Assembly (NCBI RefSeq): GCF_002024165.1
Contig: NZ_MWQN01000001.1
Coordinates: 6,200,001-6,264,000 of the forward strand
DNA length: 64,000 nt
Reading direction: 5' to 3'
Origin: Embleya scabrispora
GTDB lineage: Bacteria; Actinomycetota; Actinomycetes; Streptomycetales; Streptomycetaceae
Both the position numbers and the translations under genes were made by a program. Below, piece by piece: positions 12,305-33,548 of this stretch (positions are counted from its first letter, which is position 1; the number at the start of each line of letters is the position of its first letter). The notes under the pieces are model-generated. The model made no database searches. It was not told the origin of the DNA and saw only the letters and a program-made list of their open reading frames with translations.

Positions 12305-12439
12305 CACGGTGCCTTTCCGGGCCCATGGCACGGCGAACCCGGAAGACCCGGCGGCCGAGCGGGCACACCGACGGCGGCACCGCCCCGACGCACGGGTCGC
12401 TGGGGCTCCGTCCCGCGGACCACGACGGGGATGGGAGAC

Positions 12440-12580
12440 GAACACTCCGGCGACGGGCATTCGGGCTCGCCGTCGGGAGGGACGGACCACCGCTGCGGGT
12501 CAGCGCCGGATTCACACCGGACTTCCCCCGTCGTCGGAACTGCTGCGGGTCGTCGCACAAGACGATCGAGACAGATGGAG
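12440..12580 (-). promoter_or_regulatory. Cobalamin riboswitch 1
   Basis: On the minus strand the core reads GGGGAAGTCCGGTGTGAATC, then GCGCTGACCCGCAGCGG (12490-12532), matching the class signature GGGAA..GGTG..AATCC..CCCGC. A B12-box-like GAGCCCGAATGCCCG follows at about 12452-12468. It lies about 140 bases upstream of the alpha/alpha-barrel start codon, in the right orientation to control it. Binding of adenosylcobalamin normally lowers expression. Confidence 0.85.
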
Positions 12581-13399: not shown

Positions 13400-13600
13400 G
13401 TCTGGTGCCGGCGAGGACCGCGTGTCATGCTATGGCCTGCTGTGCGACGGCAAAGCCGAGGAAACCGGTGTGATTCCGGTGCGGTCCCGCCACTGTGATC
13501 GGGGAGCGACTCCCGTCGAGGCCACGGCCCCGCCTCGGGGTTGGAAGGCCGGGGGAAGTGTCGATCCGAGAGCCAGGAGACTCACGTCGTCGCCACCTCG
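13400..13600 (+). promoter_or_regulatory. Cobalamin riboswitch 2
   Basis: Core GAGGAAACCGGTGTGATTCC then GTCCCGCCACTGTGATCGGGG at about 13458-13504, with a B12 box GAGAGCCAGGAGACTCAC near 13568-13585. All hallmarks of a cobalamin riboswitch are present. It ends about 45 bases before the adenosyltransferase start codon. Confidence 0.93.
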
Positions 13601-15315: not shown

Positions 15316-15331
15316 CGTGTTGTCCACGAGG

Positions 15332-15412
15332 ATGGAGCAAACACGCATGACACCGGCCCGCGCCCTTGCCCCGGATGTTCCTGCACGCGTCGAAGCCATC
15401 AGGATTTCCTGA
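15332..15412 (+). CDS. Possible leader ORF after riboswitch 3
   Basis: 26 codons starting with ATG 17 bases after the riboswitch (MEQTRMTPARALAPDVPARV and six more residues, ending EAIRIS). It is where the riboswitch-controlled gene would be expected to begin. It could be the surviving amino end of a lost small cobalt/B12-related membrane protein, a leader peptide, or chance. No family is recognised. Confidence 0.25.
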   Translation: MEQTRMTPARALAPDVPARVEAIRIS

Positions 15413-15527
15413 CCACTTCGACGTAGACCCGAGCCGTCGCCGACCACGCGCGCGCCCCCGCGCCGCAGCCGGCTGCTTCGGTCATGCCTCCCCCTCCGGA
15501 TCGCACCTGACGAGAGACAGGTCGTTC

Positions 15528-17027
15528 ATGGTCCGCGAGCTTTCCCACTTCATCGGCGGCAAGCACGTCACTGGCACCTCCGGCGTGTTCGGCGACGTGT
15601 ACGACCCCAACACCGGACAGGTACAGGCCCGCGTTCCTCTCGCGGATCGCGCCGACACCTTGACGGCGATCGCCGACGCCGAACGGGCGCAGCCCGAGTG
15701 GGCCGACTGGAATCCCCAGCGGCGCGCCCGGGTCCTGGCCCGCTTCCTGCAACTGGTCGAGCCCGAACGCGAATCGCTCGCCCGGCTGCTGTCCGCCGAA
15801 CACGGCAAGACCATCGCGGACGCCCATGGTGACCTGCAACGCGGCCTGGAAGTCGTGGAGTTCGCCACCGGCATCCCACACCTGCTCAAGGGGGAATTCA
15901 CCGACAACGCGGGCAGCGGGATCGACGTGCACTCGCTGCGCCAACCGCTCGGCGTGGTCGCCGGCATCACCCCCTTCAACTTCCCCGCGATGATCCCGCT
16001 GTGGAAGATCGCTCCCGCCATCGCCTGCGGCAACGCGTTCGTGCTCAAGCCGTCCGAGCGCGACCCCTCGGTGCCGCTGCGCCTGGCCGAGCTTTTCCTG
16101 GAAGCCGGTCTGCCGCCCGGCGTGCTGAACGTGGTCCACGGCGGCAAGGAGAGCGTGGACACGCTCCTGGAGGACCCGCGCGTCCAGGCGCTCGGCTTTG
16201 TCGGCTCGACCGCGATCGCCGAGTACGTGTACACGACCGCCACCGCGAACGGCAAGCGCGCCCAGTGCTTCGGCGGCGCCAAGAACCACCTGATCGTGAT
16301 GCCGGACGCCGATCTCGACCAGGTCGTCGAGGCCCTGATCGGGGCCGGGTACGGCTCCGCGGGCGAGCGCTGCATGGCCATCTCGGTGGCGGTTCCCGTC
16401 GGCGCCGAGACCGCGGACGCGCTGGTGGACAAGCTCGTCGCCCGGATCGCGACTCTGCGGGTGGGCCCCTCGCACGACCCCGAGGCCGACTTCGGCCCGC
16501 TCGTGGGCCGGGACGCACTCGACCGGGTGCGCGGCTACCTGGACATCGGTGTGGCCGAAGGCGCCAAGCTGCTCCTCGACGGCCGGGACCTGCGGGTGCC
16601 GGGCCACGAGGACGGCTACTTCGTCGGCGCGTCGTTGTTCGATAACGTGACGCCCTCGATGCGGGTGTACCGCGAGGAGATCTTCGGCCCGGTGTTGTCC
16701 GTGGTCCGCGCGGCGTCCTACGAGGACGCGCTGGGGCTGGCGAGCGGGCACGAGTACGGCAACGGCGTGGCGATCTTCACCCGCGACGGCGACACCGCCC
16801 GCGACTTCTCCCGCCGGGTGAACACCGGCATGGTCGGCATCAACGTGCCCATCCCGGTGCCGGTGGCCTACCACACCTTCGGCGGCTGGAAGAGGTCCGG
16901 ATTCGGCGACCTGAACCAGCATGGCCCGGACTCGATCCGCTTCTACACCCGTACGAAGACGGTGACCTCGCGCTGGCCGTCGACCGCGCGCGAGAGTGCG
17001 AACTTCGACATTCCGACGATGGACTGA
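15528..17027 (+). CDS. mmsA: Methylmalonate-semialdehyde dehydrogenase (CoA-acylating)
   Basis: 499-residue aldehyde dehydrogenase that converts methylmalonate semialdehyde plus CoA and NAD to propionyl-CoA, the last step of valine degradation. Landmarks: LGVVAGITPFNFPAMIPLWK, NAFVLKPSERDPS, FVGSTAIAEYVY, and GSAGERCMAIS with the catalytic Cys; the end has FGGWKRSGFGD. These distinguish the MmsA/IolA branch. The start at 15528 has GAGAGACAGG upstream and matches the family amino end (HFIGGKHV). It is first in a five-gene operon whose members touch or overlap. A cobalamin riboswitch precedes it, at unusual distance. Confidence 0.95.
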   Translation: MVRELSHFIGGKHVTGTSGVFGDVYDPNTGQVQARVPLADRADTLTAIADAERAQPEWADWNPQRRARVLARFLQLVEPERESLARLLSAEHGKTIADAHGDLQRGLEVVEFATGIPHLLKGEFTDNAGSGIDVHSLRQPLGVVAGITPFNFPAMIPLWKIAPAIACGNAFVLKPSERDPSVPLRLAELFLEAGLPPGVLNVVHGGKESVDTLLEDPRVQALGFVGSTAIAEYVYTTATANGKRAQCFGGAKNHLIVMPDADLDQVVEALIGAGYGSAGERCMAISVAVPVGAETADALVDKLVARIATLRVGPSHDPEADFGPLVGRDALDRVRGYLDIGVAEGAKLLLDGRDLRVPGHEDGYFVGASLFDNVTPSMRVYREEIFGPVLSVVRAASYEDALGLASGHEYGNGVAIFTRDGDTARDFSRRVNTGMVGINVPIPVPVAYHTFGGWKRSGFGDLNQHGPDSIRFYTRTKTVTSRWPSTARESANFDIPTMD

Positions 17028-21056: not shown

Positions 21057-21446
21057 TTATCCCTCTCCCCGCAGACGCAAGAGGTAGGTGTCCATGATCC
21101 AGCCGTGCCGGGCTCGGGCCTCGGCTCGCAACCCGACGATGCGATCGGCGACTTCCGACAGTCGTCCGGAGACCAGGATCTCGTCCGGAGTTCCTACGTA
21201 CGCGCCCCAGTAGATCCACAGATTCTCGCCCGCGAGATGGGTGAAGGTCTGGTGCGCGTCGAGCATCACCACGATGTCTCCGCTCCCGTTGGCGAAGTCC
21301 GCGAACCCCTCGGCGAAATACCGTCCGGGAGTGATGTGCAGCGGCCGGCCCACTTGCGTGAGAGCGATCCGATGACGCGCCGCCAGGGCCGAGACGCTGC
21401 TGATTCCGGGGATCACCTCGAAGTCGAAGTCCACTTCCGCGCCTGC
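21057..21446 (-). pseudogene. cobF: Precorrin-6A synthase (CobF) 3' remnant
   Basis: 129 residues matching the carboxy half of the deacetylating precorrin-6A synthase of aerobic B12 biosynthesis: DFDFEVIPGISSVSALAARH, IALTQVGRP, VVMLDAHQTFTHLAGE, IYWGAYVGTPDEILVSGRLS and a last segment HGWIMDTYLLR. The amino half with the methyltransferase glycine loop is missing; upstream the frame is antisense-like junk inside the ECF S-component gene. No start codon precedes the conserved part. It is a stump that now abuts, and overlaps out of frame, the 3' end of the ECF operon. Confidence 0.85.
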
Positions 21447-22297
21447 GTAAGGCTGTTGTCGGCTGGGGCGGGTTCGAACACGATCGGTGCCTCGAACGCG
21501 GCCTTGCGGGATGCGCGCCGCAGGGCGGCCAGTACCGCCGGGCCGACGAGGACGATCGCGACGCAGTTGGTGATGGCGCGGCCGGTGTCCCATCCGAAGG
21601 TCGAGGTGAGCACGGTGAACACGAAGAACCGGCGCAGGTTGTCCAGGATGCCGTCGCCGGGGACGAAGGCCGGGCCGACCATGGATTCGGAGTCGGCGAG
21701 GAACGGCCAGAACCACATGTTCATGAGGAAGCCGAACGCGTAGGCGGCGAAGGCGCCGTAGCAGGCGAGCATGACGATCTCGCGCCGCCCCCGGACGCGT
21801 CGGGGCAGCAGCCCCGCGCCGAGTCCGACCCAGGCCGAGGCCAGCATTTGAAACGGCAGCCACGGTCCGACGCCCGCGGTCAGCAGGGCGGACGCGAACA
21901 ACGAGGTACAGCCGAGCACGAACCCGAAACCGGGGCCGAATACGCGTCCGGCCAGGACGAGCATGAAGAACACCGTCTCGATCCCGGCCGTGCCGGCGCC
22001 GAGCGGGCGCAGCGCCGCGTTGATCGCGGAGAGCACGCCGAGCATGGCCAGCGCCTTGGAGTCGAGCCCACCACTGGTGAGTTCGGCCAGCACCACCGCG
22101 ACCACGAACGGCAGCGTGACGGCGAAGATGAGCGGTGCGTCACCCGAGTGCGCGGCCGATTCGGGGGAGGGGGAGGCGAACAGCGGCCACAGGAACATGG
22201 CCAGGCCCGCGATCGAGGCGATGGTGAGCACGATCGCGGTCCGCGCGGTGATCCGGATCGCGTTGACGCGTTTGCGCGTGTCGGTGACGGTCGTCAT
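21413..22297 (-). CDS. ECF transporter S component, probably for cobalamin
   Basis: 294-residue integral membrane protein with about six hydrophobic segments (e.g. TAIVLTIASIAGLAMFLWPL, FVVAVVLAELTSGG, FGPGFGFVLGCTSLFASALL, YGAFAAYAFGFLMNMWFWPF). This is the substrate-binding part of an energy-coupling-factor importer. The specificity is inferred from the riboswitch at the head of its operon and the transcobalamin-like neighbours. The start at 22297 overlaps the ATPase stop by four bases. The last dozen codons run into the cobF stump in another frame, so the natural carboxy end may have been replaced by RKWTSTSR. Confidence 0.88.
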   Translation of the reverse strand: MTTVTDTRKRVNAIRITARTAIVLTIASIAGLAMFLWPLFASPSPESAAHSGDAPLIFAVTLPFVVAVVLAELTSGGLDSKALAMLGVLSAINAALRPLGAGTAGIETVFFMLVLAGRVFGPGFGFVLGCTSLFASALLTAGVGPWLPFQMLASAWVGLGAGLLPRRVRGRREIVMLACYGAFAAYAFGFLMNMWFWPFLADSESMVGPAFVPGDGILDNLRRFFVFTVLTSTFGWDTGRAITNCVAIVLVGPAVLAALRRASRKAAFEAPIVFEPAPADNSLTQARKWTSTSR

Positions 22298-23994
22298 CCG
22301 GTGGGCTCCCTGTCTGCGGCGGATGCGCGAGCGTCGCGTGCGGTCGGGACGCCGTCCTCGGAGGCGGACTCCCGGTCGCTGATGTCCGTATCCGCAAGGG
22401 CGTTGCCGACGTCGGTGACGGTCAGCCATTCGGCCGGTGCGAGGATCTTGGCCACCTGGGGTGCGAACGCGGGCGAGGAGACGACGACTTCGGCGGTCGG
22501 ACCGTCGGCGACGATGTCGCCCTCGGCCATCACCACCACGCGGTCGGCGACCTGTGCCACGAACTCGACGTCGTGTGTGGCCAGTACGATCGCCCGCCCC
22601 GCGTCGGCGAGTTCGCGCACCACTCGGACGAGTCGCCGCTTCGCGTGGTAGTCGAGGCCGCGCGTCGGTTCGTCCAGCAGCATTACCTGTGGCGCGGCTA
22701 CCAGTTGGATGGCAAGCACCAGGGCGAGGCGCTGCCCCTCGGAGACATCGCGCGGGTGCAGGGTGCCGTCGATCCCCGGCGCGATGCGATCGAGCAGCGC
22801 CCGGCACGCACCGGGTTCGGCGCCGGATTCCCGGTCCGCCTCGGCGCATTCGGCGTCCACGGTCTCCAGGTAGAGCAGGTCGCCAGGAGTCTGCGGGACC
22901 AGACCGACCAGTGCGCGAGCCCGCTTCGGCTCGGCCCGGCCCGGATCGGCGCCCGCCACGTCCACGGTGCCGCCCTGGCGGGGACCGGAGCCCTGGAGGG
23001 CCCACAGCAGCGAGGATTTGCCGGAGCCGTTGCGGCCCATCAGGGCGGTGACCTGCCCGGCCGGCAACTCCAGGTCGAGGCCGCGTACGGCGATCACGTC
23101 GCCATAGCGCACGATGATGCGCCGCGCGGTCAGCAGCGGGGCGGCCGTGGAATGGGCCGATCGTGGTCCGGGCGGGGTACGGTCCGCCAACCGCGCCCGC
23201 AGTGGTGCGGCCAGGCGGCGGGCGTCGCGGACCGACAGCGGCAGCGGCGACCAGCCGGCGAGCCGCCCGAGTTCGACCACGGGCGGGGCGATGTCGCAGG
23301 TCTCCAGGATTTCGGCGGGCGCGCCGTCGCGGACCGTGCGGTCGCCGGGCAGGTGGACGAGCCGGTCGGCGTACTGCACGACCCGTTCCATGCGGTGTTC
23401 GGCGACGATCGCGGTGATCCCGAGGTCGTGCACGAGCCGGGTGATCGCGGCCAGGACGTCCTCGGCGGCGGTCGGGTCGAGTGCCGAGGTCGGCTCGTCC
23501 AGGACCAGCACCCGGGGATGCGCGGTCAACACCGCGCCGATCGCGACCCGCTGCTGCTGGCCGCCGGAAAGCGTACGCAGCGGACGATGCCGCAGCTCGG
23601 CGATACCGAGCAGGTCGAGGGTTTCCTCGACACGTTTGCGCATCACCGCCGACGGGATGGCCAACTGCTCCATCCCGTAAGCGAGTTCTTCCTCGACCGT
23701 GTCGGTGACGAAGCCGGCGAGCGGATCCTGACCGACCACGCCCACCAGGTGCGCGAATTCGCGCGGCGGTTGCGAGCGGGTCTCGATCCCGTCGACGAGC
23801 ACGCTGCCACGCAGGGTGCCGCCGGTGAAGTGCGGGACCAGGCCGTTGATCGCCCCCAGCAGGGTTGACTTGCCCGCCCCGGTGCGACCGACGACCAGAC
23901 ACAACTCCCCTTCGGGAATGGTCAATTGCACGTCGCGCAGGGCGGGGGCCGGTGCGTCGGCGTAGGTGATGGTGACGTCGCGGAATTCGATCAC
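22294..23994 (-). CDS. ECF transporter ATPase, two fused ABC domains
   Basis: 566 residues. Domain 1 (about 1-250): Walker A GRTGAGKST, signature LSGGQQQRVAIG, Walker B VLVLDEPTSALDP. Domain 2 (about 275-520): Walker A GRNGSGKSS, degenerate signature VSEGQRLAL, Walker B VMLLDEPTRGLD. Two ATPases in one chain is a common actinobacterial form of the ECF A and A' pair. It starts with GTG overlapping the T-component stop (GTGA). It powers uptake together with the T and S proteins on either side. About 45 Asp/Glu/Ala-rich residues follow the second domain. Confidence 0.93.
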   Translation of the reverse strand: MIEFRDVTITYADAPAPALRDVQLTIPEGELCLVVGRTGAGKSTLLGAINGLVPHFTGGTLRGSVLVDGIETRSQPPREFAHLVGVVGQDPLAGFVTDTVEEELAYGMEQLAIPSAVMRKRVEETLDLLGIAELRHRPLRTLSGGQQQRVAIGAVLTAHPRVLVLDEPTSALDPTAAEDVLAAITRLVHDLGITAIVAEHRMERVVQYADRLVHLPGDRTVRDGAPAEILETCDIAPPVVELGRLAGWSPLPLSVRDARRLAAPLRARLADRTPPGPRSAHSTAAPLLTARRIIVRYGDVIAVRGLDLELPAGQVTALMGRNGSGKSSLLWALQGSGPRQGGTVDVAGADPGRAEPKRARALVGLVPQTPGDLLYLETVDAECAEADRESGAEPGACRALLDRIAPGIDGTLHPRDVSEGQRLALVLAIQLVAAPQVMLLDEPTRGLDYHAKRRLVRVVRELADAGRAIVLATHDVEFVAQVADRVVVMAEGDIVADGPTAEVVVSSPAFAPQVAKILAPAEWLTVTDVGNALADTDISDRESASEDGVPTARDARASAADREPTG

Positions 23995-25226
23995 CGGACG
24001 GACTTCTCCCTGATGGTGGTACCGGTACCGGCCGGGCCCGCCCTCGGCGCGACGGCCGACGTATCGGGTGCGGGCGCGGTGTCGCCGATGCGAGGCGCGG
24101 TGAGCGGTGGCGGCGGCGCCAGCCACGCGGGCAGCACGCCGACGAGCAGCGCGAGTACCGGGAGCGGGGCCAGTTCGGGCCAGGCGAGCGGGCTCAGCGA
24201 CGGGTACAGGTTGCCCGCGTCGATCCGGCTGGTCAGGTAGAGCAGCGCGCCGGTGCCCAGACCGCAGCCGGCGACCGCGAATTCGGCCGGGCGCCAGCGG
24301 TCGGGGAGGTAGATGCTCCGGTTGATCCGCCGGCCGGTGAGCACGAAGCCGATGCCGGCGATCAGGAGGCCGCCGGGCAGCATCGTGGCGCCCAAGTAGC
24401 GGGGTGTGCTTCCGTCGAGGAGCGCGTAGACGCCGACGCACACGCCGATCAGCCCGACGAGGGTCAGGACGCCGGTCAACAGTCGGATCGCGCGTGGTAG
24501 ATGCCGATTGCGGCCGTATCCGCGCGAGTCCATCGCGGCGGCCAGTGCCAGCGAACGATCCAGCGCGTCCTGAAGGACCGGGATCGCGATCGACCGCAAC
24601 GCCCGCATGCCCTTTTGCGCCCCGCCGCGCAGTCGGCGGGCCCGGCGTACCCGCTGCACGCTCTCGACCAACTGCGGCGCGACCGACAGCGCCACGACCA
24701 CCGCCGCGCCCACCTCGTACAGCGCCGCCGGCACCGCCTTGAGCATGCGCTTGGGACTGGCCAACGCGTTCGCCGCGCCCAGGCACACGATCATCGTGGC
24801 CAGCCGCAACCCGTCGTAGAACCCGCCCAGGACGTGTTCGAGCGCGACCGGCCCGAACAGGTGGATGCCCGCCGCCCACGCGGGCAGCGGGATCTCCGGC
24901 AGGTCGACGAGCACATGCCCGCTCGCCGCGCCCGCGCCGAAGACGATCCGGAACAGCACCCGCATCACGATGATGAACAACCCAAGGAACAGGTACATCC
25001 GAAACGCCAGGGCCCACGGGGCGTCGCTGCGCCGGTTGGCCACGACGAGCCCAGACACGGCCAGGAGCAGCGCGAGCAGCAGCGGGTTGGTGGTCCGGCT
25101 GGCGGCGGTGGCCAGCCCGAGCGCCCACAACCACCACGCGCCGGGGTGCACGGTGCGGGGCAGCCGGCCGCCGCCGCGGCGGAGCGCCGCAGCGGTCGGC
25201 GACGGTTTCGGGTGGGGCACGTTCAT
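23991..25226 (-). CDS. ECF transporter T (coupling) component
   Basis: 411-residue membrane protein that links ATPase movement to the S component. Hydrophobic segments are followed by the coupling helices typical of EcfT, with two Ala-Arg-Gly-like motifs recognisable in the cytoplasmic part (QRVRRARRLRGGAQKGMRAL and AAAMDSRGYG). It is longer than the usual 260-280 residues because of an extra carboxy half with further membrane segments (LLTGVLTLVGLIGVCVGVYA, LAPLPVLALLVGVLPAWLA). The start overlaps the DUF4430 gene stop by four bases. Confidence 0.9.
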   Translation of the reverse strand: MNVPHPKPSPTAAALRRGGGRLPRTVHPGAWWLWALGLATAASRTTNPLLLALLLAVSGLVVANRRSDAPWALAFRMYLFLGLFIIVMRVLFRIVFGAGAASGHVLVDLPEIPLPAWAAGIHLFGPVALEHVLGGFYDGLRLATMIVCLGAANALASPKRMLKAVPAALYEVGAAVVVALSVAPQLVESVQRVRRARRLRGGAQKGMRALRSIAIPVLQDALDRSLALAAAMDSRGYGRNRHLPRAIRLLTGVLTLVGLIGVCVGVYALLDGSTPRYLGATMLPGGLLIAGIGFVLTGRRINRSIYLPDRWRPAEFAVAGCGLGTGALLYLTSRIDAGNLYPSLSPLAWPELAPLPVLALLVGVLPAWLAPPPPLTAPRIGDTAPAPDTSAVAPRAGPAGTGTTIREKSVR

Positions 25227-26263
25227 CCCGATCCGTCGGCGCGCGTCCGGCGGCGCCACGTGGTGAACCCGGCTGCCGCGCAGATGGCCACGAGCAGGGC
25301 GATGCCGACGATGGTCATGGTCGGGATGCCGTCCCGCTTCTTCGTGGCCAACTCCTCGCCGCCGGTCCAGGTCTGGCCCTGCGGGGTGACGCCGGAGGGC
25401 TGCACGGACGGCGCGGCCGACGCGGGCTCGGGCGCCGCGGACCCGGTCGGGGCGGTGGAGGGCACCTCGCTCGCCGGAGCGGCCGGTGGGGGTTCGGACT
25501 CCATCGGATTTCCGGAGACGCCGGGCCCGGGGGCCAGTGGGTCGGTACCCGAAGTGGTGGTCCCGCCGGCCCCGTTCGAGCCGGACCCGGTCGACGCGGT
25601 GCCGCCTCCGGCTCCGGCCGGTTTGCCTCCCGGTCCCGCCGACGTCGTGCCGTTGCCGGAATTGCCTCCGTTGCCGGCCGGCGGTTGCGGGTTGTTCGTC
25701 CTGGGCGGCGGGTCCTGGGTGGCGGGTGTGGTCGGGCGGGACGGTGCCACGCGCGGCGAGGGGTTGGTGGTCTCGGTCTTGTTCTTGGAGAACGACCAAC
25801 CCTCGAAGCTGCCGAGCGGCGGCTTGCGGTTCATTACGCCCCACTGGCTGTACGTCCACGAACCGCCGTTGGGGGAGTGCCAGTACGACCAGTACGCGCT
25901 CGCCGGCGGCGTGTCGATGCATGCCTCGGAGTTGGCCCCCGGCTTGCCCTCGATCCGGCAGATGAAGGACTCGCCCCAGCGGGCAACGCCGGCGATCTCG
26001 ATGCCGGCGTTCTTGAGCGCGGCATGGCCGGTGGCCTGATCGCCTCGTGCGCAGCGCACGATGGTCGTGCCGCCCAGATCCTGGAAGTCGATCACGACCG
26101 TCACACCGTTGCCGTCCGGGCAGTAGCCGGGCGTGCCCTTGGACGTGTCGACCGCGCGCGCGGTCGGTGCGGCGACGGTGAGCTGGGCGGTGGCGGGCAG
26201 GGTGAGCAGGGCCAGGACGGCGACCAGGCGGGCCATTCGGCCTCCGCGGCCGAGGCGCCTCAC
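25223..26263 (-). CDS. Membrane-anchored DUF4430 protein (transcobalamin beta-domain-like)
   Basis: 346 residues: signal peptide (about 1-37), a cysteine-containing DUF4430-like domain at about 45-155 (GVTVVIDFQDLGG, GESFICRIEGKPG, SAYWSYWHSPNGGSWTYSQ, PPLGSFEGWSF), a long Pro/Gly/Ser/Thr linker at 160-310, one membrane helix (MTIVGIALLVAICAAAGFTT) and a short basic tail. DUF4430 is also the carboxy-terminal beta domain of animal transcobalamin and intrinsic factor. The protein is held at the outer membrane face by its helix. It starts with GTG overlapping the upstream barrel gene, so the two are made together. Confidence 0.85.
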   Translation of the reverse strand: MRRLGRGGRMARLVAVLALLTLPATAQLTVAAPTARAVDTSKGTPGYCPDGNGVTVVIDFQDLGGTTIVRCARGDQATGHAALKNAGIEIAGVARWGESFICRIEGKPGANSEACIDTPPASAYWSYWHSPNGGSWTYSQWGVMNRKPPLGSFEGWSFSKNKTETTNPSPRVAPSRPTTPATQDPPPRTNNPQPPAGNGGNSGNGTTSAGPGGKPAGAGGGTASTGSGSNGAGGTTTSGTDPLAPGPGVSGNPMESEPPPAAPASEVPSTAPTGSAAPEPASAAPSVQPSGVTPQGQTWTGGEELATKKRDGIPTMTIVGIALLVAICAAAGFTTWRRRTRADGSG

Positions 26264-27746
26264 GTGTGCCGTCCGTTCTTCCGGCGCGCACCCGCGCGGA
26301 CGGCGAAGCCGGTACCGACCAGGCCGACCGCGAGCAACACCAATCCGCCGACCTGGGCACCGGTACGGGCGAGGCTGCTGCCGCCCCCGTTCGCGGTGCC
26401 GCCGGCGCCGGATATCGAGCCGCCCGTGCCGGCCTGGTTCGTGTTCGTCGCGGACGCGGACGAAGACGCGGAGATCGACGCGCTAGCGGTCTGGCTGAGC
26501 GAGGTGGTGGGCGACGTTGAGGCCGATGGGCTCGCGGATTCGGTGTGGGTGGCCGAGCCGGTGGGCGCGGGAGTGTGGGATCCGGTCGGCACGGTGGTGC
26601 TTGTGGCGGTCCCGGTCGGCTCGGTCGGCGCCTTACCCAGGTCGCCGAGCGGGACGCCCGCGAGTACGAGCAGGGCCTGCGGGGTCGCGCGGCGCCACTG
26701 GTCGCGCTGGAAGTCGGGGATGCCCTCCGCCTGCGCCGAGGTCAGCGCCTCCTCGTTGTAGGCGATCGTGCCGACGTCCTTGGTCGCGGCGCCTGCGTTG
26801 TCGGCGGTGATCTGGTGCTTGGCCACCCACGCGGCGGCCTTGTCCGCCTCGGCCGAGTAGCCGACCGCGCGCAGCGCCTGACCGGCCAGGCCGGTGCTGT
26901 TGGTGTTCGAGGCCGCTGTGGGCCCCGAACCACCGAACGAACCGTCCGCGCGCTGCCGGGACTTCAGCCAGTCCGCACCCTTTTTCGCGGCCGCCGCAGC
27001 GCCGGTCGACCCGTTCTCCGCCGCCGCGGACAGCAGTGCCTGCACGGCCATCCCGGTGGAGTCCGGATCGAGGACGGTGGTCGGGGTGTCCTGGCAGACC
27101 GGCCCGGTGCTGCCCAGCTGCCCCGGGAACAGTCGGAAGCCGCCGCTGGGGCACTGCTGCTTGATCAGGAAGTCCACCGCACTCTGCGGGACTCCGCCGC
27201 TGCGGGCCAGGCCCAGGACGGCGAGCGACTGCCCGAAGGCGTTGCCGGAGTCCGGGCTGCCGGTGAGCTTGTCCCGGACCCGACCCACGTCGTCGCCCGC
27301 GTCCGGGCCGGCGACCAGATCGAGGGTCTCCGCCCGCATGTCCAGCCCGCCGAACGTGGCCGGGTTGCGGCCGGCCACGACCGAGGCGAACAACACCTTC
27401 GCGGTCGCCCCGGCGATCCGCGAGCCGGGCATGCCCCACTCCTCGACGCTGTTGTACTTGCGGATGTTGGCCGCCACGGCGTCGGTCGCGGCCTTGAGCG
27501 CCGCAGGCTCCGAACGGGTGGCCGCCAGCGCCATGACGGTGTCGATGGTCAGGCCCCAGTCCGAACCGGAGAACCCGGGTATCCCCCGTCGACCAGCTCC
27601 CCGGCCTGCCATTTCGCCGCCGCAGCGGCCTGCGTGGCATACGGGTTCGCGGCGTCGGCCGACGCGGAGAAGACAGGGGAGGCCGCGACCAGAATCGCGC
27701 CGCAGACCGCGACCGCGCCGGTCTTTCGCACAGTGAGCCAGGACAT
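26260..27746 (-). CDS. Sortase-anchored alpha/alpha-barrel protein, frameshifted
   Basis: Secreted toroid protein paralogous to the one at 11207: signal peptide MSWLTVRKTGAVAVCGAILV.., then repeats such as FGQSLAVLGLARSGG, PSGGFRLFPG, STGMAVQALLSAA, DGSFGGSG and STGLAGQALRAVG. A Ser/Thr linker follows, then LARTG, a membrane helix and RRKNGRHT: the LAxTG signal of class E sortases. A one-base deletion in a run of five G (27583-27587) separates ELVDGG from PGFSGSDWGLTID; one extra G restores the frame. About 495 residues if repaired. It heads the ECF operon behind riboswitch 4. Either a sequencing error or a recent mutation. Confidence 0.8.
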
Positions 27747-27854
27747 CGGTGGAACCCTTCCGAGACCGACGCGTCCCGGGGCCCGCCGACGACACGACGC
27801 CGGTCGGGCGGTCCGGGCTTCAGCGTGTAGTCCACGACAGCTGGAGCCGACAAA

Positions 27855-28010
27855 ACTCGTACGCACCCAGGTATTCCGACTCGCGGCGGCCTTGCGGCCA
27901 CCGCCTACGGTTGCGGGTCAGCGCCGGATTTCGACCGGCTTCCCCTGGGTTTCGAACTATGGAATTGGAATGCCGATACGACTCGGCGTGCGGAGCATAC
28001 GGAACATTCC
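27855..28010 (-). promoter_or_regulatory. Cobalamin riboswitch 4 (ECF operon)
   Basis: Minus strand: GGGGAAGCCGGTCGAAATCC, GCGCTGACCCGCAACCG, a GC-rich stem, then B12 box GAGTCGGAATACCTGGGTG (27863-27882). It lies about 110 bases before the barrel gene start. It is nearly identical to riboswitch 5, including sequence outside the aptamer (GTCCACGACAGCTGGAGCC). Confidence 0.92.
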
Positions 28011-28321
28011 GACCGTCGGACAACAGGATGAGCGCGGAATCCCTCGTGCCGTTCGTCACGATGATGGACATCAGACAACGGGATGGGGGCCGGAGGGTCG
28101 GCGGCGGCTCCAGTCTCGGCGCGTTGGTGCCGGTGAAGGCCAATCCGCCGCCACCATGTCCACGGCCCAACCCGCCGCCGGACGAACCACCCTCACTCGC
28201 CGCGGTGTTCGTCGGCGTGGCGGTGCCTCTCGGGCCCGGCCCGGGGTTGGTGCGCGGGTCGCGAATCAGCGTCGCGAAAGAGAAGCCCACACTGCCAGTC
28301 GAGTCAACGCGTTGGGCTGGT
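28011..28321. other. Gene-less stretch with a possible anchor-motif remnant
   Basis: Between riboswitch 4 and the metE terminator. On the minus strand around 28129-28240 a frame reads TNTAASEGGSSGGG .. GGGGLAFTGTNA, which looks like the end of a LAxTG-anchored surface protein, but no membrane helix follows. Probably a decayed gene end. Confidence 0.3.
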
Positions 28322-28353
28322 CGCCGGGGTGGGAGCATGCTCCTACCCCGGCG
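28322..28353 (-). terminator. metE terminator
   Basis: CGCCGGGGTGGGAGCATG pairs with CATGCTCCTACCCCGGCG, a near-perfect palindrome of 32 bases starting nine bases after the metE stop codon on the minus strand. Confidence 0.88.
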
Positions 28354-28361
28354 AGCTCAGG

Positions 28362-30686
28362 TCAGAAGGTCGTGTTCGGCAGCGTCGCGCGCACCTCCCG
28401 GGCCGCCGCGACCAGGTTCTCCAGCGAGGTGCGAACCTCGGGCCAGCCGCGGGTCTTGAGGCCGCAATCGGGGTTGACCCAAAGACGTTCGGCGGGGATC
28501 GCGGCAAGTCCCTTGCGGAGCAGGCCCACCACCTCGTCCGTGCTCGGGACGCGCGGAGAGTGGATGTCGTACACGCCGGGTCCGGCCTCGCGCGGGTAGC
28601 CGTGGGCGGCGAGTTCGCCGGCGACCTGCATGTGCGAACGGGCCGCCTCCAGGCTGATCACGTCGGCGTCGAGGTCGTCGATGGCCTGCACGATGTCGCC
28701 GAACTCGGCGTAGCACATGTGGGTGTGGATCTGGGTCGCCGCGCGTACGCCGGACGTGCTCAGGCGGAATGCCTCGGTGGCCCAGGCCAGGTATTCGGCG
28801 TGGTCCACGGCGCGCAGCGGCAGCGTTTCGCGCAACGCGGGTTCGTCCACCTGGATGACCGAAGTCTCGGCCGCCTCAAGGTCGTTGACCTCGTCGCGCA
28901 GCGCGAGCGCGACCTGTCGGGCGGTGTCGCCGAGCGGTTGGTCGTCGCGGACGAAGGACCAGGCGAGCATGGTCACCGGTCCGGTCAGCATGCCCTTGAC
29001 GGGTCGGTCGGACAACGACTGGGCGAACGAGGTCCAGCGCACGGTCATCGGTTCGGGACGGGAGATGTCGCCGGCCAGGATCGGCGGGCGTACATACCGG
29101 GTGCCGTACGACTGGACCCAGCCGTGTCGGGTGGCCACGTATCCGGTGAGCTGTTCGGCGAAGTACTGGACCATGTCGTTGCGTTCGGCCTCACCGTGCA
29201 CCAGGACGTCGATGCCGGCCTTCTCCTGGAAGGAGATCACGTCGCGGATCTCGGCTTCGATGCGCTCCTCGTACCCGGCGCCGTCGATGCGTCCCGCGCG
29301 CAGGTCGGCGCGGGCGGCGCGCAGTTCGGCGGTCTGCGGGAAGGAGCCGATGGTGGTCGTGGGCAGCAACGGCAGGCCCAGGTGCGCGCGCTGGGCCTCG
29401 GCCCGTTCGGCGTACGGCTTGCCGCGGCGCGCGTCGGCTTCGGTGACCGCGGCGGCGCGGGCGCGTACGGCGGGGTCGTGGGTGAGTGCGGAGGCCTTGC
29501 GCGCGGCCAGGTCGGCGCGGTTGGCGGCGAGGTGGGTCGCGATGGTGTCGGTGCCCTGGCTCAGACCGCGGGCCAGGGTGACGATCTCCTCGGTCTTCAG
29601 CCGGGCGAAGGCGAGCCATCGGGCGATCTGGGGGTCGATGTCGCGTTCCGCGTCGGCGTCCAGCGGCACGTGCAACAGCGAGCAGGAGGCGGCGACGTCG
29701 ACGCGGTCGGCCAGGCCCAGCAGTATGCCGAGCGTGGTCAGCGACTTGCCGAGGTCGTTGATCCACACGTTGCGGCCGTCCACGACGCCGGCGACCAGAC
29801 GTTTGCCGGGCAGCCCGCCGACGGCGGCCAGCGCGTCCAGGTTGGCGGCGGCGGAGCCGGTGAAGTCCAGTGCCAGGCCCTCGATCGGGGCCTTGGCCAG
29901 GGTGGGCAGCGCCTCGCCGAGCCGGTCGAAGTACGAGGCCACGAGGAGCTTGGGCCGGTCGGTCAGTCCGCCGAGGTCGCGGTAGACGCGGGCTGCGGCG
30001 CCCAGTTCGGCGAAGCTGCGGTCCTGCACCAGCGCCGGCTCGTCGAGTTGTACCCACTCGGCCCCGGCTCCGCGCAGGTCGGCGAGCAACCGCGCGTACA
30101 CCGGAAGCAGCCGGTCCAGCAGGGTCAGCGGCTGGAAGTCGGCCGCTACGCCCGGTGCGGGCTTGGCCAGTAGGAGGTAGGTGAGCGGGCCCACCAGCAC
30201 CGGCCGGGCGGTCAGGCCCAGCGCGACGGCCTCTCGGAACTCGGCTACCTGCTTCGTGGAGTTCGCCTCGAAGACGGTGTCCGGCCCGAGTTCGGGGACG
30301 AGGTAGTGATAGTTGGTGTCGAACCACTTGGTCATCTCGAGCGGCGCGACGTCTTGCGTGCCGCGGGCCATGGCGAAGTAGCCGTCCAGGGCGTCGGCTT
30401 CGACGGCGGCGCGATGCCGGGCCGGGATGGCGCCCACGGCGACGGTGGTGTCGAGGACGTGGTCGTACAGCGAGAAGTCGCCGGTGGGCACCTCGTGGAT
30501 GCCGGCCTCGGCGAGGCGTCGCCAGTTGGCGAGGCGCAGTTCGGCCGAGGTGTCCCGAAGCGCCTGTGCGTCGATGCGGCCGGCCCAGTAGCCCTCGACG
30601 GCCTTCTTCAGTTCCCGGTTCGGGCCCTGACGGGGATAGCCGTACACGGTGGCACGGGCTGCCGCGGCTGCGGTCTTGGTGGTCAC
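28362..30686 (-). CDS. metE: Cobalamin-independent methionine synthase
   Basis: 774 residues; transfers the methyl group of methyltetrahydropteroyl-triglutamate to homocysteine without B12. Amino domain: YGYPRQGPNRELKKAVEGYW; carboxy domain begins LPTTTIGSFPQT. Zinc and substrate motifs are intact: IHTHMCYAEF (His and Cys ligands), the DADVISLEAARS Glu, and WVNPDCGLKTR (Cys ligand). Length is normal (about 750-770). GTG at 30686 is chosen: GGAGAG precedes it and TTKTAAAAARATV leads straight into the conserved start. Cobalamin riboswitch 6 in its leader would switch it off when B12 is available, the classical arrangement. Confidence 0.97.
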   Translation of the reverse strand: MTTKTAAAAARATVYGYPRQGPNRELKKAVEGYWAGRIDAQALRDTSAELRLANWRRLAEAGIHEVPTGDFSLYDHVLDTTVAVGAIPARHRAAVEADALDGYFAMARGTQDVAPLEMTKWFDTNYHYLVPELGPDTVFEANSTKQVAEFREAVALGLTARPVLVGPLTYLLLAKPAPGVAADFQPLTLLDRLLPVYARLLADLRGAGAEWVQLDEPALVQDRSFAELGAAARVYRDLGGLTDRPKLLVASYFDRLGEALPTLAKAPIEGLALDFTGSAAANLDALAAVGGLPGKRLVAGVVDGRNVWINDLGKSLTTLGILLGLADRVDVAASCSLLHVPLDADAERDIDPQIARWLAFARLKTEEIVTLARGLSQGTDTIATHLAANRADLAARKASALTHDPAVRARAAAVTEADARRGKPYAERAEAQRAHLGLPLLPTTTIGSFPQTAELRAARADLRAGRIDGAGYEERIEAEIRDVISFQEKAGIDVLVHGEAERNDMVQYFAEQLTGYVATRHGWVQSYGTRYVRPPILAGDISRPEPMTVRWTSFAQSLSDRPVKGMLTGPVTMLAWSFVRDDQPLGDTARQVALALRDEVNDLEAAETSVIQVDEPALRETLPLRAVDHAEYLAWATEAFRLSTSGVRAATQIHTHMCYAEFGDIVQAIDDLDADVISLEAARSHMQVAGELAAHGYPREAGPGVYDIHSPRVPSTDEVVGLLRKGLAAIPAERLWVNPDCGLKTRGWPEVRTSLENLVAAAREVRATLPNTTF

Positions 30687-30841
30687 GGAACTCTCCTTCG
30701 CGAGCCTGTCGACAAGATCCCGGAGATGGATCGCAGGCACGAAGGGATGGCAAACCACACGGGCCACGTCGGCGTACTCGCGCGCACATACGTGTCCCAC
30801 CGGTTGTCCGCCGACCCGCCCACGAGGTCACCGAGCTCTCC

Positions 30842-30860
30842 GTGCGCTGCGACAGCGCAC
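30842..30860 (-). other. Small hairpin between riboswitch 6 and metE
   Basis: GTGCGCTG and CAGCGCAC pair around CGA. It lies directly downstream of the B12 box on the transcribed strand and may belong to the switching (expression) part of the leader. There is no T-tract, so control of translation or Rho-dependent termination is more likely than intrinsic termination. Confidence 0.45.
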
Positions 30861-31070
30861 GGGCAGTGGCAGGTCTTCGGACTCGCGGGCACATCCACCA
30901 AGGGTGGACACCTACTGGCCGTCGCTTCCCGGATCCGACACGGATCCAGTGCTGTTGACGGCGGTCGTTCCCACTCACCGCTGCGGGGCAGTCCCGGATT
31001 CTCACCGGGTTCCCTCTTGCGACGCGCCTACCCGGATGGCAGGGCGAACCGACTGCGTGCGACAGCTTAG
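30861..31070 (-). promoter_or_regulatory. Cobalamin riboswitch 6 (metE)
   Basis: Minus strand: AGAGGGAACCCGGTGAGAAT, GGGACTGCCCCGCAGCGGTG (about 30979-31018), and the B12 box GAGTCCGAAGACCTGCC at 30868-30885, with a longer variable arm between. It lies about 180 bases upstream of the metE GTG. Confidence 0.92.
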
Positions 31071-31297
31071 ACGTACAAGAGGCACCCGGGGGAGCCCGGT
31101 GCACGCGCCCGAGGGCAAGAGCACGCCTCGAAGGCGTGGACGCAGCCGGCGTCGTTGCGATCGAGTCGGTGCTCGTGACGCGTTGCCGCGTTCGTCCCGG
31201 GCGGCCTGCCCCCACAGGGGGTGATCCTGTTGGAACGAACGCGGTCGCGACCTCGAGGCCGAGCCTGCCTCGGGGTCACCGGCGGATCGGATCGGCG

Positions 31298-31831
31298 CTA
31301 CGGGCGCGTCGGGGCCACGCGCGGCGGCGGATTGGTGGTGTCCGTCTTGTCCTTGGAGAACGACCAACCCTCGAAGCTGCCCAGCGGAGGCTTGCGGGCG
31401 CTCGCGCCCCACGAACTGTAGGTCCAAGTGCCGTTGTTGGGCGCGTGCCAATAAGACCAGTAGGCGGATGCCGGCGGGGTGTTGACGCACGGTTCGGTGT
31501 CGACGCCGGGCTTGCCCTCGATCCGGCAGATGAACGCCTCGCCCCAGCGGTTGGTGCCCTGGATCTGGAAGCCGGCGTTCTTCAGCGCGGCCAAGCCCGT
31601 GGCCTGGTCGCCGGGCGCACAGCGAGTGAGCGTCGCCCCGCCGAGTTCCTGGAAGTCGACGATCACGGTGACGCCGTTGGCGTTCGGGCAGACGCCGGCG
31701 GAGCCCTTGGTGGGGTCGATGGCGTAGGCGGCCGGGGCGTTCACGGTGATCTGGGCGGTGGCGGGCAGCACGAGCAGGGCGAGCGCCCCGACCATCCGAC
31801 CTATTCGAGCCTTGTTTCCACGAATCTTCAC
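31298..31831 (-). CDS. Secreted DUF4430 protein without anchor
   Basis: 177 residues; paralogue of the first 160 residues of the protein at 25223. Signal peptide (RIGRMVGALALLVLPATAQ), then GVTVIVDFQELGG, GEAFICRIEGKPG, SAYWSYWHAPNNGTWTYSS, PPLGSFEGWSF and SKDKTDTTNPPPRVAPTRP, ending exactly where the paralogue enters its long linker. No membrane helix or sortase motif, so it should be free or rely on a partner. GTG at 31831 is chosen because AAGGGA precedes it. Controlled by riboswitch 5, a near copy of the one on the ECF operon, so gene and switch were probably duplicated together. Confidence 0.85.
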   Translation of the reverse strand: MKIRGNKARIGRMVGALALLVLPATAQITVNAPAAYAIDPTKGSAGVCPNANGVTVIVDFQELGGATLTRCAPGDQATGLAALKNAGFQIQGTNRWGEAFICRIEGKPGVDTEPCVNTPPASAYWSYWHAPNNGTWTYSSWGASARKPPLGSFEGWSFSKDKTDTTNPPPRVAPTRP

Positions 31832-31999
31832 GCGCGGATCCCTTCGTGCGACGGGCGTCGGCGCGAGCGGCGAGAGCGATGCCGACCGGGCCGAGCGATG
31901 TTCCTCTCGGGACCGCGCACCCCCGGTATCCACCGACAAGACATCGCCGGACGTGAAATCCGGGCCTCAGCGTGCAGTCCACGACAGCTGGAGCCTCTA

Positions 32000-32150
32000 A
32001 CTCGTACGAATCCAGGTGTTCCGACTCGCGGTGGCCTGCCGGCCACCGCCTACGGTTGCGGGTCAGCGCCGGATTTCGACCGGCTTCCCCTGGAATCCGA
32101 ACTATGCGGTTGTCGCCGACCTGAAGAGAGCCAGCTTGCGGAGCGTACGA
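32000..32150 (-). promoter_or_regulatory. Cobalamin riboswitch 5 (free DUF4430 gene)
   Basis: Minus strand: GGGGAAGCCGGTCGAAATCC and GCGCTGACCCGCAACCGTAG (32043-32092), B12 box GAGTCGGAACACCTGGATTC (32009-32028). Matches riboswitch 4 at almost every position of the core. About 170 bases before the start codon of the gene at 31831. Confidence 0.92.
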
Positions 32151-32364
32151 GATGCCCTGTTCTTCGGACAACGGGTCATACGACGAATCCGCGATGTCGT
32201 TCGTCACCTTCTTGGGTGCTCAACGCTGGTTTGCACAACGGCGGTTCGGTCAGCCGGGCCGCACTGGGCCCCACGACAGGGGGCAACGGCGCGTTTCGAC
32301 GAGCAAGTTCGAGGAGCACGCGATGCCGGCGACAGGGCGCGTCGGCCCGCCGGTGAACCGGTGG

Positions 32365-33309
32365 TCAGCCGCGTGTCGTCTCCGCGCCCGCGTCGCCCGG
32401 CAGTCGTCGCGCCTCGGCGTGGGTCACCGGCGCACCGGCCGTGACGTCGTGCAATACCCATGCGAGCACCTCGGCGCCGCGCACCACACGGGGGCCGGGG
32501 CGGTTGAAGTACGCCGGTCCGTCGAGCACCCACACCCGCCCGGACCGCACGGCGGGCAGGTCCGACCATCCCGGCAGAGACGTCAGCAGGCTCGCCTCCG
32601 ATTCGGTGCGCTCGGGCGCGAACCCGCACGGCAGCACCAGGATCACATCCGGCCGGGAGTCTCGAACCGCAGCCCACTCCACGGCTTTGGTGTGTTCGCC
32701 GGGCGCGGCGAGCAGCGGTTCGCCGCCGGCCAGGGCGATCTGCTCGGGGACCCAGTGCCCGGCGGGCCACAGCGGGTCGAGCCATTCGATGGCCGCGACC
32801 CGGGGCCTCGGCCGCCCCGCGACCGCCGCGGCCACGGCCGCCATGCGGGCCCGCAACTCCCGCAGCCGCGCGGCTGCGACGTCCGCGACTCCCAGCACCG
32901 CACCCACGTGGGTCAGTGTGTCGAGGACGTCCGGCAGCGTGCGCGGTTCCAGACTGACCACGCGCGGACCGGTGTCCAGAACCCGAACCGTCTCGGAGAC
33001 CGCCGTGTACGACACCGCGCACACCGCGCACAGATCCTGCGTGAGGACGACATCGGGCGCCAACTCCGCGAGGCGCTCGGCGTCCAACGTGTACAGCGAC
33101 GAACCCCGGTGCGCCGCACCGCCGACGGCCTCGGAGATCTCCCGACTGCTCAGCCGATCCGCATCGAACTCCGCACGGGTGACCACCGGCACCCCGGCGA
33201 CATCCCCCGGCGGCCAGTCGCATTCGTGGGTGCGGCCTACCAAGTCGCCCACGAGTCCGAGTTCGGCGACCAGATCGGTGGCTGCGGGCAACAACGAGAC
33301 GATGCGCAT
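32365..33309 (-). CDS. Cobalamin-binding, BtuF-like protein
   Basis: 314-residue protein of the periplasmic-binding-protein type 2 fold used by BtuF and ferric-siderophore binding proteins: [81 protein letters not shown] and [18 protein letters not shown]. It has no signal peptide, as is usual for the actinobacterial 'cobalamin-binding protein' branch, so a cytoplasmic role (binding or salvage) is likely. The GRTHECD-type motif is characteristic. There is no BtuC/BtuD permease beside it; the start at 33309 is where similarity begins. No riboswitch is seen in its own short upstream region. Confidence 0.85.
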
Positions 33310-33548
33310 CCAGCAAGCGTAGGTCGCACGCGACGGCACGGGGCCCACAGCCGGCGGGGACCGCGATGTGACAGCGTCGGCGCGACCTTCGGTCAGCGCA
33401 CCGTGTCCGAGGTGCGGATGGCCTCTCCTCGGCGCGGAATCTCGCCGATAGCTTTATTGCCATGTCCGTCGGAATCATCTCGCCCCGGAGACCGGGCCTC
33501 GGCTCGGCCCGAACCACGGCCATCCACGATCACAGTGAGCGCTGAGCC

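What the first reader, a model, noticed from the sequence alone, without database searches (positions are those of the whole stretch)
21413..33309. Split transcobalamin-like cobalamin capture system feeding an ECF transporter
Seen: secreted alpha/alpha-barrel and DUF4430 proteins lie in one operon with ECF T, A and S genes, four-base overlaps throughout, behind a cobalamin riboswitch. Established: animal transcobalamin and intrinsic factor consist of an alpha/alpha-barrel domain (Cobalamin_bind) followed by a beta domain annotated as DUF4430. Inference: here the two halves are separate surface proteins that together clamp cobalamin and pass it to the ECF S component, a bacterial counterpart (possibly an ancestor) of the animal carriers.
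Basis: partly seen in the sequence, partly recalled or inferred. Interest (0 to 1): 0.92.

Follow-up and report, generated by a model that had tools for sequence, protein, structure and literature searches.

The report
Split transcobalamin-like vitamin B12 uptake system
Soil actinobacteria appear to catch vitamin B12 with two separate exported proteins that resemble the two halves of the human B12 carrier transcobalamin, and to pass it to a dedicated membrane importer whose genes sit behind B12-sensing RNA switches.

Summary
On the minus strand a cobalamin riboswitch is followed by an alpha/alpha-barrel gene, a small beta-domain gene and ECF T, A and S genes; all four junctions overlap by 4 bases. 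Pfam's DUF4430 model misses the beta protein, but its AlphaFold model (pLDDT 87.6) has transcobalamin/intrinsic-factor beta domains as its top 14 PDB matches. The barrel is a confident toroid, not specifically transcobalamin-like. The order recurs across Actinomycetota: 106 of 114 testable loci have the riboswitch directly upstream, and ten ORFs fuse the halves. Of 40 genomes tested, 22 lack CbiC (de novo B12 synthesis). Best reading: corrinoid capture by two separate halves that clamp the vitamin, then ECF import. Binding was not tested. The general idea was published for low-GC Gram-positives (Burroughs et al. 2007). New to my knowledge are the split actinobacterial form and a second tier: 34 of 135 loci, this window included, also encode an unanchored barrel and an unanchored beta protein. 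'Ancestor of the animal carriers' is not supported. The window's operonic barrel gene is one base short in a G run, perhaps a sequencing error.

The parts
27870..27944 (-). cobalamin riboswitch core ahead of the barrel-beta-T-A-S operon
   Evidence: RF00174 36.3 bits, gathering 31.5; own model R1 84.7 bits (this sequence was in the model's training set)
26260..27746 (-). alpha/alpha-barrel protein; signal peptide (by eye) and C-terminal LARTG-TM-basic tail; frame broken (one base short near 27583)
   Evidence: NCBIfam SCO2321_fam E 1.5e-19, 70 bits, cut-off 300; frames; intact orthologue alignment
25223..26263 (-). transcobalamin-beta-like (SLBB/DUF4430-type) protein; signal peptide (by eye), long linker, C-terminal TM
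   Evidence: AlphaFold pLDDT 87.6; top 14 PDB hits transcobalamin/intrinsic factor; NCBIfam SCO2322_fam E 8.1e-7, 29.5 bits, cut-off 85
23991..25226 (-). ECF T component (CbiQ family)
   Evidence: PF02361 33.9 bits, cut-off 25
22294..23994 (-). ECF A component, two ATPase domains in one chain
   Evidence: PF00005, two stretches
21413..22297 (-). ECF S component
   Evidence: PF12822 38.8 bits, cut-off 30.7; no solved S component found by sequence
30851..31069 (-). cobalamin riboswitch ahead of metE
   Evidence: RF00174 98.3 bits
28362..30686 (-). metE, B12-independent methionine synthase (start chosen by eye)
   Evidence: TIGR01371 1017 bits, cut-off 930
32015..32089 (-). cobalamin riboswitch core ahead of the unanchored beta protein
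   Evidence: RF00174 36.0 bits, gathering 31.5
31298..31831 (-). unanchored (no C-terminal TM) transcobalamin-beta-like protein
   Evidence: 64% identical to the operonic one; no C-terminal TM by hydropathy
12435..12569 (-). cobalamin riboswitch ahead of the unanchored barrel
   Evidence: RF00174 45.3 bits
11207..12304 (-). unanchored barrel protein; signal peptide (by eye)
   Evidence: SCO2321_fam E 2.8e-38, 132 bits, cut-off 300; barrel profile E 1.6e-108; no C-terminal TM by hydropathy
13425..13596 (+). cobalamin riboswitch ahead of the PduO-type adenosyltransferase
   Evidence: RF00174 90.1 bits
13645..14238 (+). cob(I)yrinic acid a,c-diamide adenosyltransferase (PduO type)
   Evidence: TIGR00636 167 bits, cut-off 108

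Best explanation
This is a vitamin B12 (corrinoid) scavenging system of Actinomycetota. When intracellular cobalamin is low, riboswitches let the genes be expressed. An exported barrel protein and an exported beta-grasp protein, which correspond to the two domains of animal transcobalamin but are made as separate chains, close on one corrinoid between them. The operonic pair is held at the cell surface: the barrel by a sortase-like or TM tail, the beta protein by a C-terminal TM. It delivers the ligand to the dedicated ECF S component, and the T component with the double ATPase drives import. Shown: gene order, riboswitches, beta fold, barrel fold, C-terminal anchors (by hydropathy), conservation and natural fusions. 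Inferred: corrinoid as ligand (from riboswitches and fold), the two-protein clamp (by analogy with human TC-alpha and TC-beta), the direction of riboswitch control, and hand-off to S.
For: Riboswitch directly upstream in 106 of 114 testable loci, and over the Rfam gathering score before the operon, metE and the stand-alone beta gene here. The loci were gathered with the beta domain alone, yet 125 of 139 (window included, three duplicates included) have a T-S pair beside it; of the other 14 most are short or cut contigs. Beta-domain model: top 14 Foldseek hits are transcobalamin or intrinsic factor, including the isolated beta domain with cyanocobalamin bound (5np4); probability 0.96-1.00, then 0.21. 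Toroid in a model of a natural fusion, pLDDT 91.6. Ten ORFs hold both halves, in either order. 22 of 40 genomes lack CbiC, so cobalt for de novo synthesis is not a general substrate. C-terminal TM with basic tail in 114 of 119 beta proteins next to T. Separate human TC halves assemble only with cyanocobalamin (PMC5599065, passages).
Against: No binding or transport data. Foldseek E-values for the beta domain are only 5.6e-3 to 5.5e-2, none at or below 0.001, one core strand is reduced to two residues in the model, and profile-profile probability is 42%. The barrel's best structural and sequence matches are squalene-hopene and terpene cyclases; transcobalamin ranks 25th by Foldseek and is absent from the profile search at E up to 10. 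S has no sequence match to any solved S component, CbrT included. The host itself has CbiC, so it probably makes B12. The operonic barrel is frameshifted in this assembly. Eight of 114 loci show no riboswitch by the walk used, and 15 of 125 loci with a T-S pair show no barrel on the same strand within 9 kb. Model R1 was built from cores of the window and of 16 of these loci, so one search is not independent of Rfam.
Confidence: 0.76

Rival explanations
1. A cobalt importer: T is CbiQ-like and B12 riboswitches also control cobalt uptake, so the surface proteins would bind cobalt or a cobalt chelate.
For: T matches PF02361 CbiQ; riboswitch control is shared by both functions (recalled).
Against: S matches ECF_trnsprt and ECF-ribofla_trS, and CbiM is not among its Pfam hits at E up to 1; 22 of 40 genomes with a beta-domain hit lack CbiC; the beta fold is the corrinoid-binding domain of transcobalamin.
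Confidence: 0.07
2. The ligand is mainly cobinamide, another cobamide or a corrinoid precursor rather than cobalamin; the mechanism is otherwise the same.
For: Human TC-beta binds cobinamide (PMC5599065, passages); L. delbrueckii ECF-CbrT takes up both cobalamin and cobinamide (PMC5997447, passages).
Against: Nothing found here separates the two; riboswitch specificity was not tested.
Confidence: 0.3
3. The barrel is an enzyme (terpene-cyclase-like or glycan-acting) and the beta protein a surface adhesin, with B12 control reflecting some other B12-dependent need.
For: Best barrel matches are squalene-hopene and terpene cyclases, then glycosidases among others; SQHop_cyclase_C matches 61 of the 95 rows of A4 at E up to 1 (73 rows hold a barrel).
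Against: The barrel has a signal peptide (by eye) and often a wall or membrane anchor (61 of 77 operonic barrels), shares an ORF with the beta domain in ten loci and lies on the same strand within 9 kb in 110 of 125 loci with a T-S pair; PF01122 Cobalamin_bind matches 22 of the 95 rows, best E 1.4e-5.
Confidence: 0.07

Closest known systems
Bacterial transcobalamin-like SLBB proteins with alpha/alpha toroid and CbiO/CbiQ genes (Burroughs et al. 2007, PMC1796856; passages and sections 8 and 10 seen)
   Same: Secreted or surface beta-grasp domain with hairpin insert, combined with a toroid on either side, encoded with CbiO-like ATPase and CbiQ-like membrane protein; B12 scavenging predicted. Stand-alone beta domains and a second SLBB paralogue in the operon are mentioned too.
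   Different: That text places the clade in low-GC Gram-positives, planctomycetes and less often euryarchaea, and holds neither 'Streptomyces' nor 'riboswitch' (term search of the main text; figures and supplements not seen). Here: Actinomycetota, barrel and beta as separate genes, beta domains below Pfam's reach, riboswitches and S component documented, plus unanchored copies.
Animal transcobalamin, intrinsic factor, haptocorrin
   Same: Beta-domain fold and a toroid partner; two halves acting on one ligand is the proposed mechanism.
   Different: Animals use one chain, barrel then beta; here usually two chains, and nine of the ten fused ORFs read beta then barrel; delivery to an ECF importer instead of endocytosis.
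ECF-CbrT of Lactobacillus delbrueckii (PMC5997447, passages)
   Same: An ECF-type importer for corrinoids.
   Different: CbrT shares a common ECF module (group II); here T, A and S are dedicated in one operon, S shows no sequence match to solved CbrT, and surface capture proteins are added.
NCBIfam SCO2321 / SCO2322 families (NF053823, NF040672)
   Same: Streptomyces proteins over the SCO2322 cut-off stand beside the same T-A-S genes with a barrel ahead.
   Different: Named only by locus tag; window proteins score below both cut-offs; the two halves of the SCO2322 model match in swapped order in G000 and G134.
Bacteroidetes BtuH surface B12 binder (PMC8941943, passages)
   Same: Surface B12 capture ahead of an importer.
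   Different: Different phylum and envelope; relationship to the present proteins not tested here.

Membership tests
Transcobalamin-like SLBB clade | beta-grasp fold with a beta-hairpin inserted after the helix | tested here: met
   DSSP order E19-25 E33-39 H45-51 E56-59 E63-70 E89-96 E119-126, one core strand only two residues long; top 14 PDB hits TC/IF
Transcobalamin-like SLBB clade | match to Pfam PF14478 (DUF4430) | tested here: not met
   0 matches in own genome; 0 of the 75 rows of A3; canonical DUF4430 domains do occur in the same cluster in L101 and L106
Transcobalamin-like SLBB clade | fused to or paired with an alpha/alpha toroid, with CbiQ/CbiO genes nearby | tested here: met
Transcobalamin-like SLBB clade | conserved aromatic residue in the hairpin insert | tested here: inconclusive
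   a Trp at position 62 of the modelled domain, in the hairpin, is at 90% or more in A3 but is replaced in the more distant rows of A1; the feature is named in PMC1949818 (passages)
Transcobalamin-like SLBB clade | binds B12 | not testable with these tools
   no assay; ligand inferred
Animal transcobalamin family | one chain, barrel followed by beta domain | tested here: not met
   separate genes in the window; barrel-then-beta order seen in one of ten fused ORFs, L086
Animal transcobalamin family | barrel detectable as PF01122 Cobalamin_bind | tested here: inconclusive
   not listed for the window's two barrels at E up to 1 and 0.1; 22 of the 95 rows of A4 at E up to 1, best 1.4e-5; the two seen one by one score 13.5 and 14.0 bits, cut-off 25
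ECF transporter with dedicated module | T, two ATPase domains and S in one operon | tested here: met
   Pfam over cut-off for T, A and S; overlaps
ECF-CbrT | S component homologous to CbrT | tested here: not met
   no solved S component matched at E up to 1 with one protein or a 25-row profile; fold not tested
Cobalamin riboswitch regulon | RF00174 over gathering score upstream of the genes | tested here: met
   window; relatives; extended with R1
Squalene-hopene cyclase | cyclase with intact catalytic motif (recalled) | tested here: inconclusive
   toroid similarity is real; signal peptide and anchors argue against a cyclase; catalytic residues were not examined in a structure

The most novel reading that the evidence does not exclude
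A two-tier, protein-based B12 foraging system. Riboswitch-controlled unanchored barrel and beta halves are released, diffuse, clamp corrinoid away from the cell, and are read by a second, surface-anchored pair that transfers the ligand to the ECF importer: a bacterial analogue of serum transcobalamin plus receptor, assembled from split halves. In one search, 35 of 135 loci hold all four kinds of protein; one of them, L069, is a fusion/frameshift artefact, leaving 34, the window among them. In 32 of these 34 the unanchored barrel has a riboswitch of its own.
Probability: 0.35. Interest if true: 0.87.

Novelty: new variant of a known kind. Interest (0 to 1): 0.66.

Why it matters
How Gram-positive bacteria catch scarce corrinoids outside the membrane is largely open (my own knowledge). 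In the one annotated record I looked at (Streptomyces sp. SAT1) these genes are called a hypothetical protein and a squalene-oxidase-repeat protein, yet the beta domain is found in about one in six of 198 sampled Actinomycetota genomes (32, 30). If right, the finding gives a testable function to the SCO2321-SCO2322 gene families, a natural two-protein version of the transcobalamin clamp, and possibly a diffusible B12 carrier made by bacteria, which would matter for B12 exchange in soil communities.

Tried and rejected
Ancestor of animal carriers: not supported, because PF14478 misses all 75 rows of A3; no tree with animal sequences was built.

Transcobalamin specificity of the barrel: sought with Foldseek, Pfam and a PDB profile search. 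Transcobalamin appears at rank 25, PF01122 in 22 of 95 rows, and no transcobalamin among the 42 profile hits at E up to 10. I therefore claim only a toroid.

Sequence route from the beta domain to solved transcobalamin failed with one sequence, 12 rows and 75 rows. The relation rests on fold.

Interdomain arrangement of the fused model could not be inspected: a look in the box while that job was running showed no coordinate files, also none for the finished beta model. A VIA-align comparison was not available.

Papers: the searches listed no paper that by title or abstract describes this actinobacterial system; the library lacks most subscription journals, and Rodionov et al. 2009 was not held.

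Some hits counted as unanchored barrels (for example in L080, L109, L111) look like unrelated toroid genes away from the operon; they do not enter the four-part count. The tiers are not perfectly clean: 21 of 82 beta proteins and 36 of 90 barrels not assigned to the operon also have a C-terminal TM; several are fusions or operon genes that the neighbour rule missed.
Full report
What is in the window. The window lies in a genome of about 11 Mb (8 contigs). The nearest named relative of the beta protein in the scan of named genomes is from Embleya hyalina (92% over the domain). On the minus strand, five genes follow a cobalamin riboswitch (27870-27944): a barrel protein (26260-27746), a beta-domain protein (25223-26263), ECF T (23991-25226), a double ATPase A (22294-23994) and S (21413-22297). 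I read all four junctions: each is a 4-base overlap. T, A and S pass Pfam's cut-offs. metE (28362-30686) sits behind its own riboswitch (30851-31069), and a stand-alone beta protein (31298-31831) behind another (32015-32089). Elsewhere in the window are an unanchored barrel protein (11207-12304) behind a riboswitch (12435-12569) and a PduO-type adenosyltransferase (13645-14238) behind one more. Of 11 cobalamin riboswitches in the whole genome, six are in this window.

Corrections to the observation. 'DUF4430' is not what the databases say. PF14478 matches nothing in this genome and none of the 75 rows of A3, two of them from the window; Pfam finds only sub-threshold toroid hits for the barrel. 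NCBIfam gives the Streptomyces families SCO2321 and SCO2322 at sub-threshold scores. The barrel reading frame is broken: the signal peptide and first residues are in one frame, the rest in another. Compared with the intact E. hyalina gene the window is one base short in a G run. A second copy of the system about 75 kb away (L069) has a beta gene that is one base short relative to the window gene, its C-terminal part reading in another frame. Two such single-base gaps suggest assembly error, but this is not proven.

The beta protein has the transcobalamin beta fold. I predicted the residues encoded at 25757-26161 with the 75-row alignment A3: pLDDT 87.6, pTM 0.82, strand-strand-helix-hairpin-strand-strand, with one core strand only two residues long. 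A hairpin after the helix is what Burroughs et al. (PMC1796856; passages and sections 8 and 10) give as typical of the transcobalamin-like clade. Against the PDB, the first 14 of 219 hits are all transcobalamin or intrinsic factor, among them the isolated human beta domain in apo and cyanocobalamin-bound form. Probabilities are 0.96-1.00 and the next hit falls to 0.21; E-values are 5.6e-3 to 5.5e-2, so modest. Profile-profile comparison with eight canonical DUF4430 domains aligns most of the domain collinearly (columns 17-124 of 135; E 2.6e-4, probability 42%). Canonical DUF4430 genes stand in the same cluster in two relatives, L101 and L106.

The barrel is a toroid, not specifically a transcobalamin barrel. 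A natural beta-barrel fusion from Allokutzneria (L134) gave pLDDT 91.6, about 97 over most of the barrel, pTM 0.74. Foldseek puts squalene-hopene and terpene cyclases first, with glycosidases and others, and transcobalamin at rank 25 (E 1.2e-4); a sequence profile finds cyclases and complement-type toroids, not transcobalamin. PF01122 Cobalamin_bind matches 22 of the 95 alignment rows (73 of which hold a barrel), weakly in the two I saw one by one. Across the barrel rows there are conserved polar positions and a near-invariant cysteine pair (72 of 73 each).

Conservation. I collected relatives by the beta domain alone: SCO2322 model in 32 of 198 Actinomycetota genomes, eight of them over its cut-off; window protein in 26 of 61 relatives; and a pattern scan of named genomes giving 272 relatives, of which 78 loci were returned. 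I fetched 60 stretches around the hits. With profiles for all five proteins and a riboswitch model built from 20 cores (R1; searches), one search prints the order for 139 loci, window included: 125 have a T-S pair, and of these 110 also have a barrel on the same strand within 9 kb. After dropping three duplicate loci (one search finds no others by identical T or S), 114 loci have a T-S pair and enough upstream DNA. In 106 of them the riboswitch is on the same strand, no more than 416 nt ahead of the first barrel or beta match. Eight have none by this walk (L069, L078, L104, L115, L117, L121, L127, L162); two of these, L069 and L162, have one farther up. Eight further loci were too short. Of 211 riboswitch hits in 2.55 Mb, 165 lie directly before a barrel or beta gene. 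R1 was trained partly on these loci. The independent Rfam model gives matches over its cut-off somewhere in 37 of 48 such genomes (list truncated), and I read out RF00174 hits inside 24 of the 60 unnamed stretches, three of them below the cut-off. The loci are related, so these counts are not independent events.

Split, fused and permuted. Beta and barrel share one open frame in ten ORFs: beta then barrel in nine, among them L134, L138 and L140, and barrel then beta in L086. In the Streptomyces SCO2322 family the two halves of the beta domain are in swapped order relative to the others: the family model's second half matches ahead of its first half in G000 and G134, and the sequences show the same. 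This looks like a circular permutation; it was not checked by a structure.

Anchored and unanchored tiers. Of 119 beta proteins directly before T, 114 end in a hydrophobic stretch with a basic tail; of 77 barrels before them 61 do, and 46 carry an LxxTG-like motif. Of the beta proteins not placed before T, 21 of 82 have such a tail. In 35 of 135 loci all four kinds occur (anchored and unanchored barrel, anchored and unanchored beta); one of these (L069) is an artefact of a fusion and a frameshift, leaving 34. In 32 of the 34 the unanchored barrel has a riboswitch within 450 nt (not in L187 and L200). The unanchored beta protein has its own riboswitch in five of the 34 (the window, L071, L143, L144, L170), follows the unanchored barrel in 19 (the Micromonospora type), and is an extra gene beside the anchored one in the ECF operon in ten (the Amycolatopsis type) (counted by hand). 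Anchors were judged by hydropathy only; no signal-peptide predictor was run.

Ligand. The riboswitches, the fold, the neighbouring adenosyltransferase and metE point to a corrinoid. I gave 40 of the 57 genomes that had a beta-domain hit: 22 of the 40 lack CbiC (19 of the 37 that are at least 90% complete and at most 5% contaminated), which speaks against cobalt for de novo synthesis as the general substrate. The host itself has CbiC, so here import would supplement synthesis. Cobalamin versus cobinamide cannot be decided. S shows no sequence match to a solved S component.

Mechanism. For human transcobalamin, separately made alpha and beta domains co-elute only when cyanocobalamin is present (PMC5599065, passages). 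A system that makes the halves as separate chains could work the same way: ligand-dependent closure at the surface, then hand-off to S. This step is inference.

Prior work. Burroughs et al. 2007 already described toroid plus transcobalamin-like beta domain plus CbiO/CbiQ operons in low-GC Gram-positives, predicted B12 scavenging and proposed transfer to animals. Their main text holds neither 'Streptomyces' nor 'riboswitch' (term search); their figures and supplements were not seen. My searches listed no paper on the actinobacterial split form by title or abstract; the library is partial. Public annotation of one such operon reads 'prenyltransferase/squalene oxidase repeat-containing protein', 'hypothetical protein', T, A, S, next to metE. 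I therefore rate it a new variant of a known kind.

Noticed in passing
window 15153-15321 (+) and 15366-17027 (+): A cobalamin riboswitch (90.9 bits) stands before a methylmalonate-semialdehyde dehydrogenase gene (TIGR01722 over cut-off), followed by what look by eye like acyl-CoA dehydrogenase and enoyl-CoA hydratase genes; B12 control of this pathway is unusual to my knowledge.
   Followed up: partly
L069 (G000:C1:6136001-6156000), outside the window: A second copy of the system in the same genome: riboswitch, a very large protein with beta domain, repeat-like middle part, barrel and LPRTG-type anchor, then barrel, a beta gene one base short, T, A and S.
   Followed up: partly
window near 27583 (-): The operonic barrel gene is one base short in a G run compared with Embleya hyalina; sequencing error or real frameshift.
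   Followed up: partly
L117, L109, L110 and other Streptomyces-type loci: Beta domain apparently circularly permuted: the YWSYW half comes first and the strand half with the V-rich motif second.
   Followed up: partly
L101 (4034-4207, -) and L106 (15981-16127, +): Canonical PF14478 DUF4430 domains in the same riboswitch cluster as the divergent beta domain, a possible bridge between the two families.
   Followed up: partly
window 32368-33312 (-): A Peripla_BP_2 (BtuF-like) protein beginning without an obvious signal peptide (by eye) next to the unanchored beta gene.
   Followed up: no
L138, L145, L188, L195 and others: Some barrel genes carry two barrel domains in tandem.
   Followed up: no
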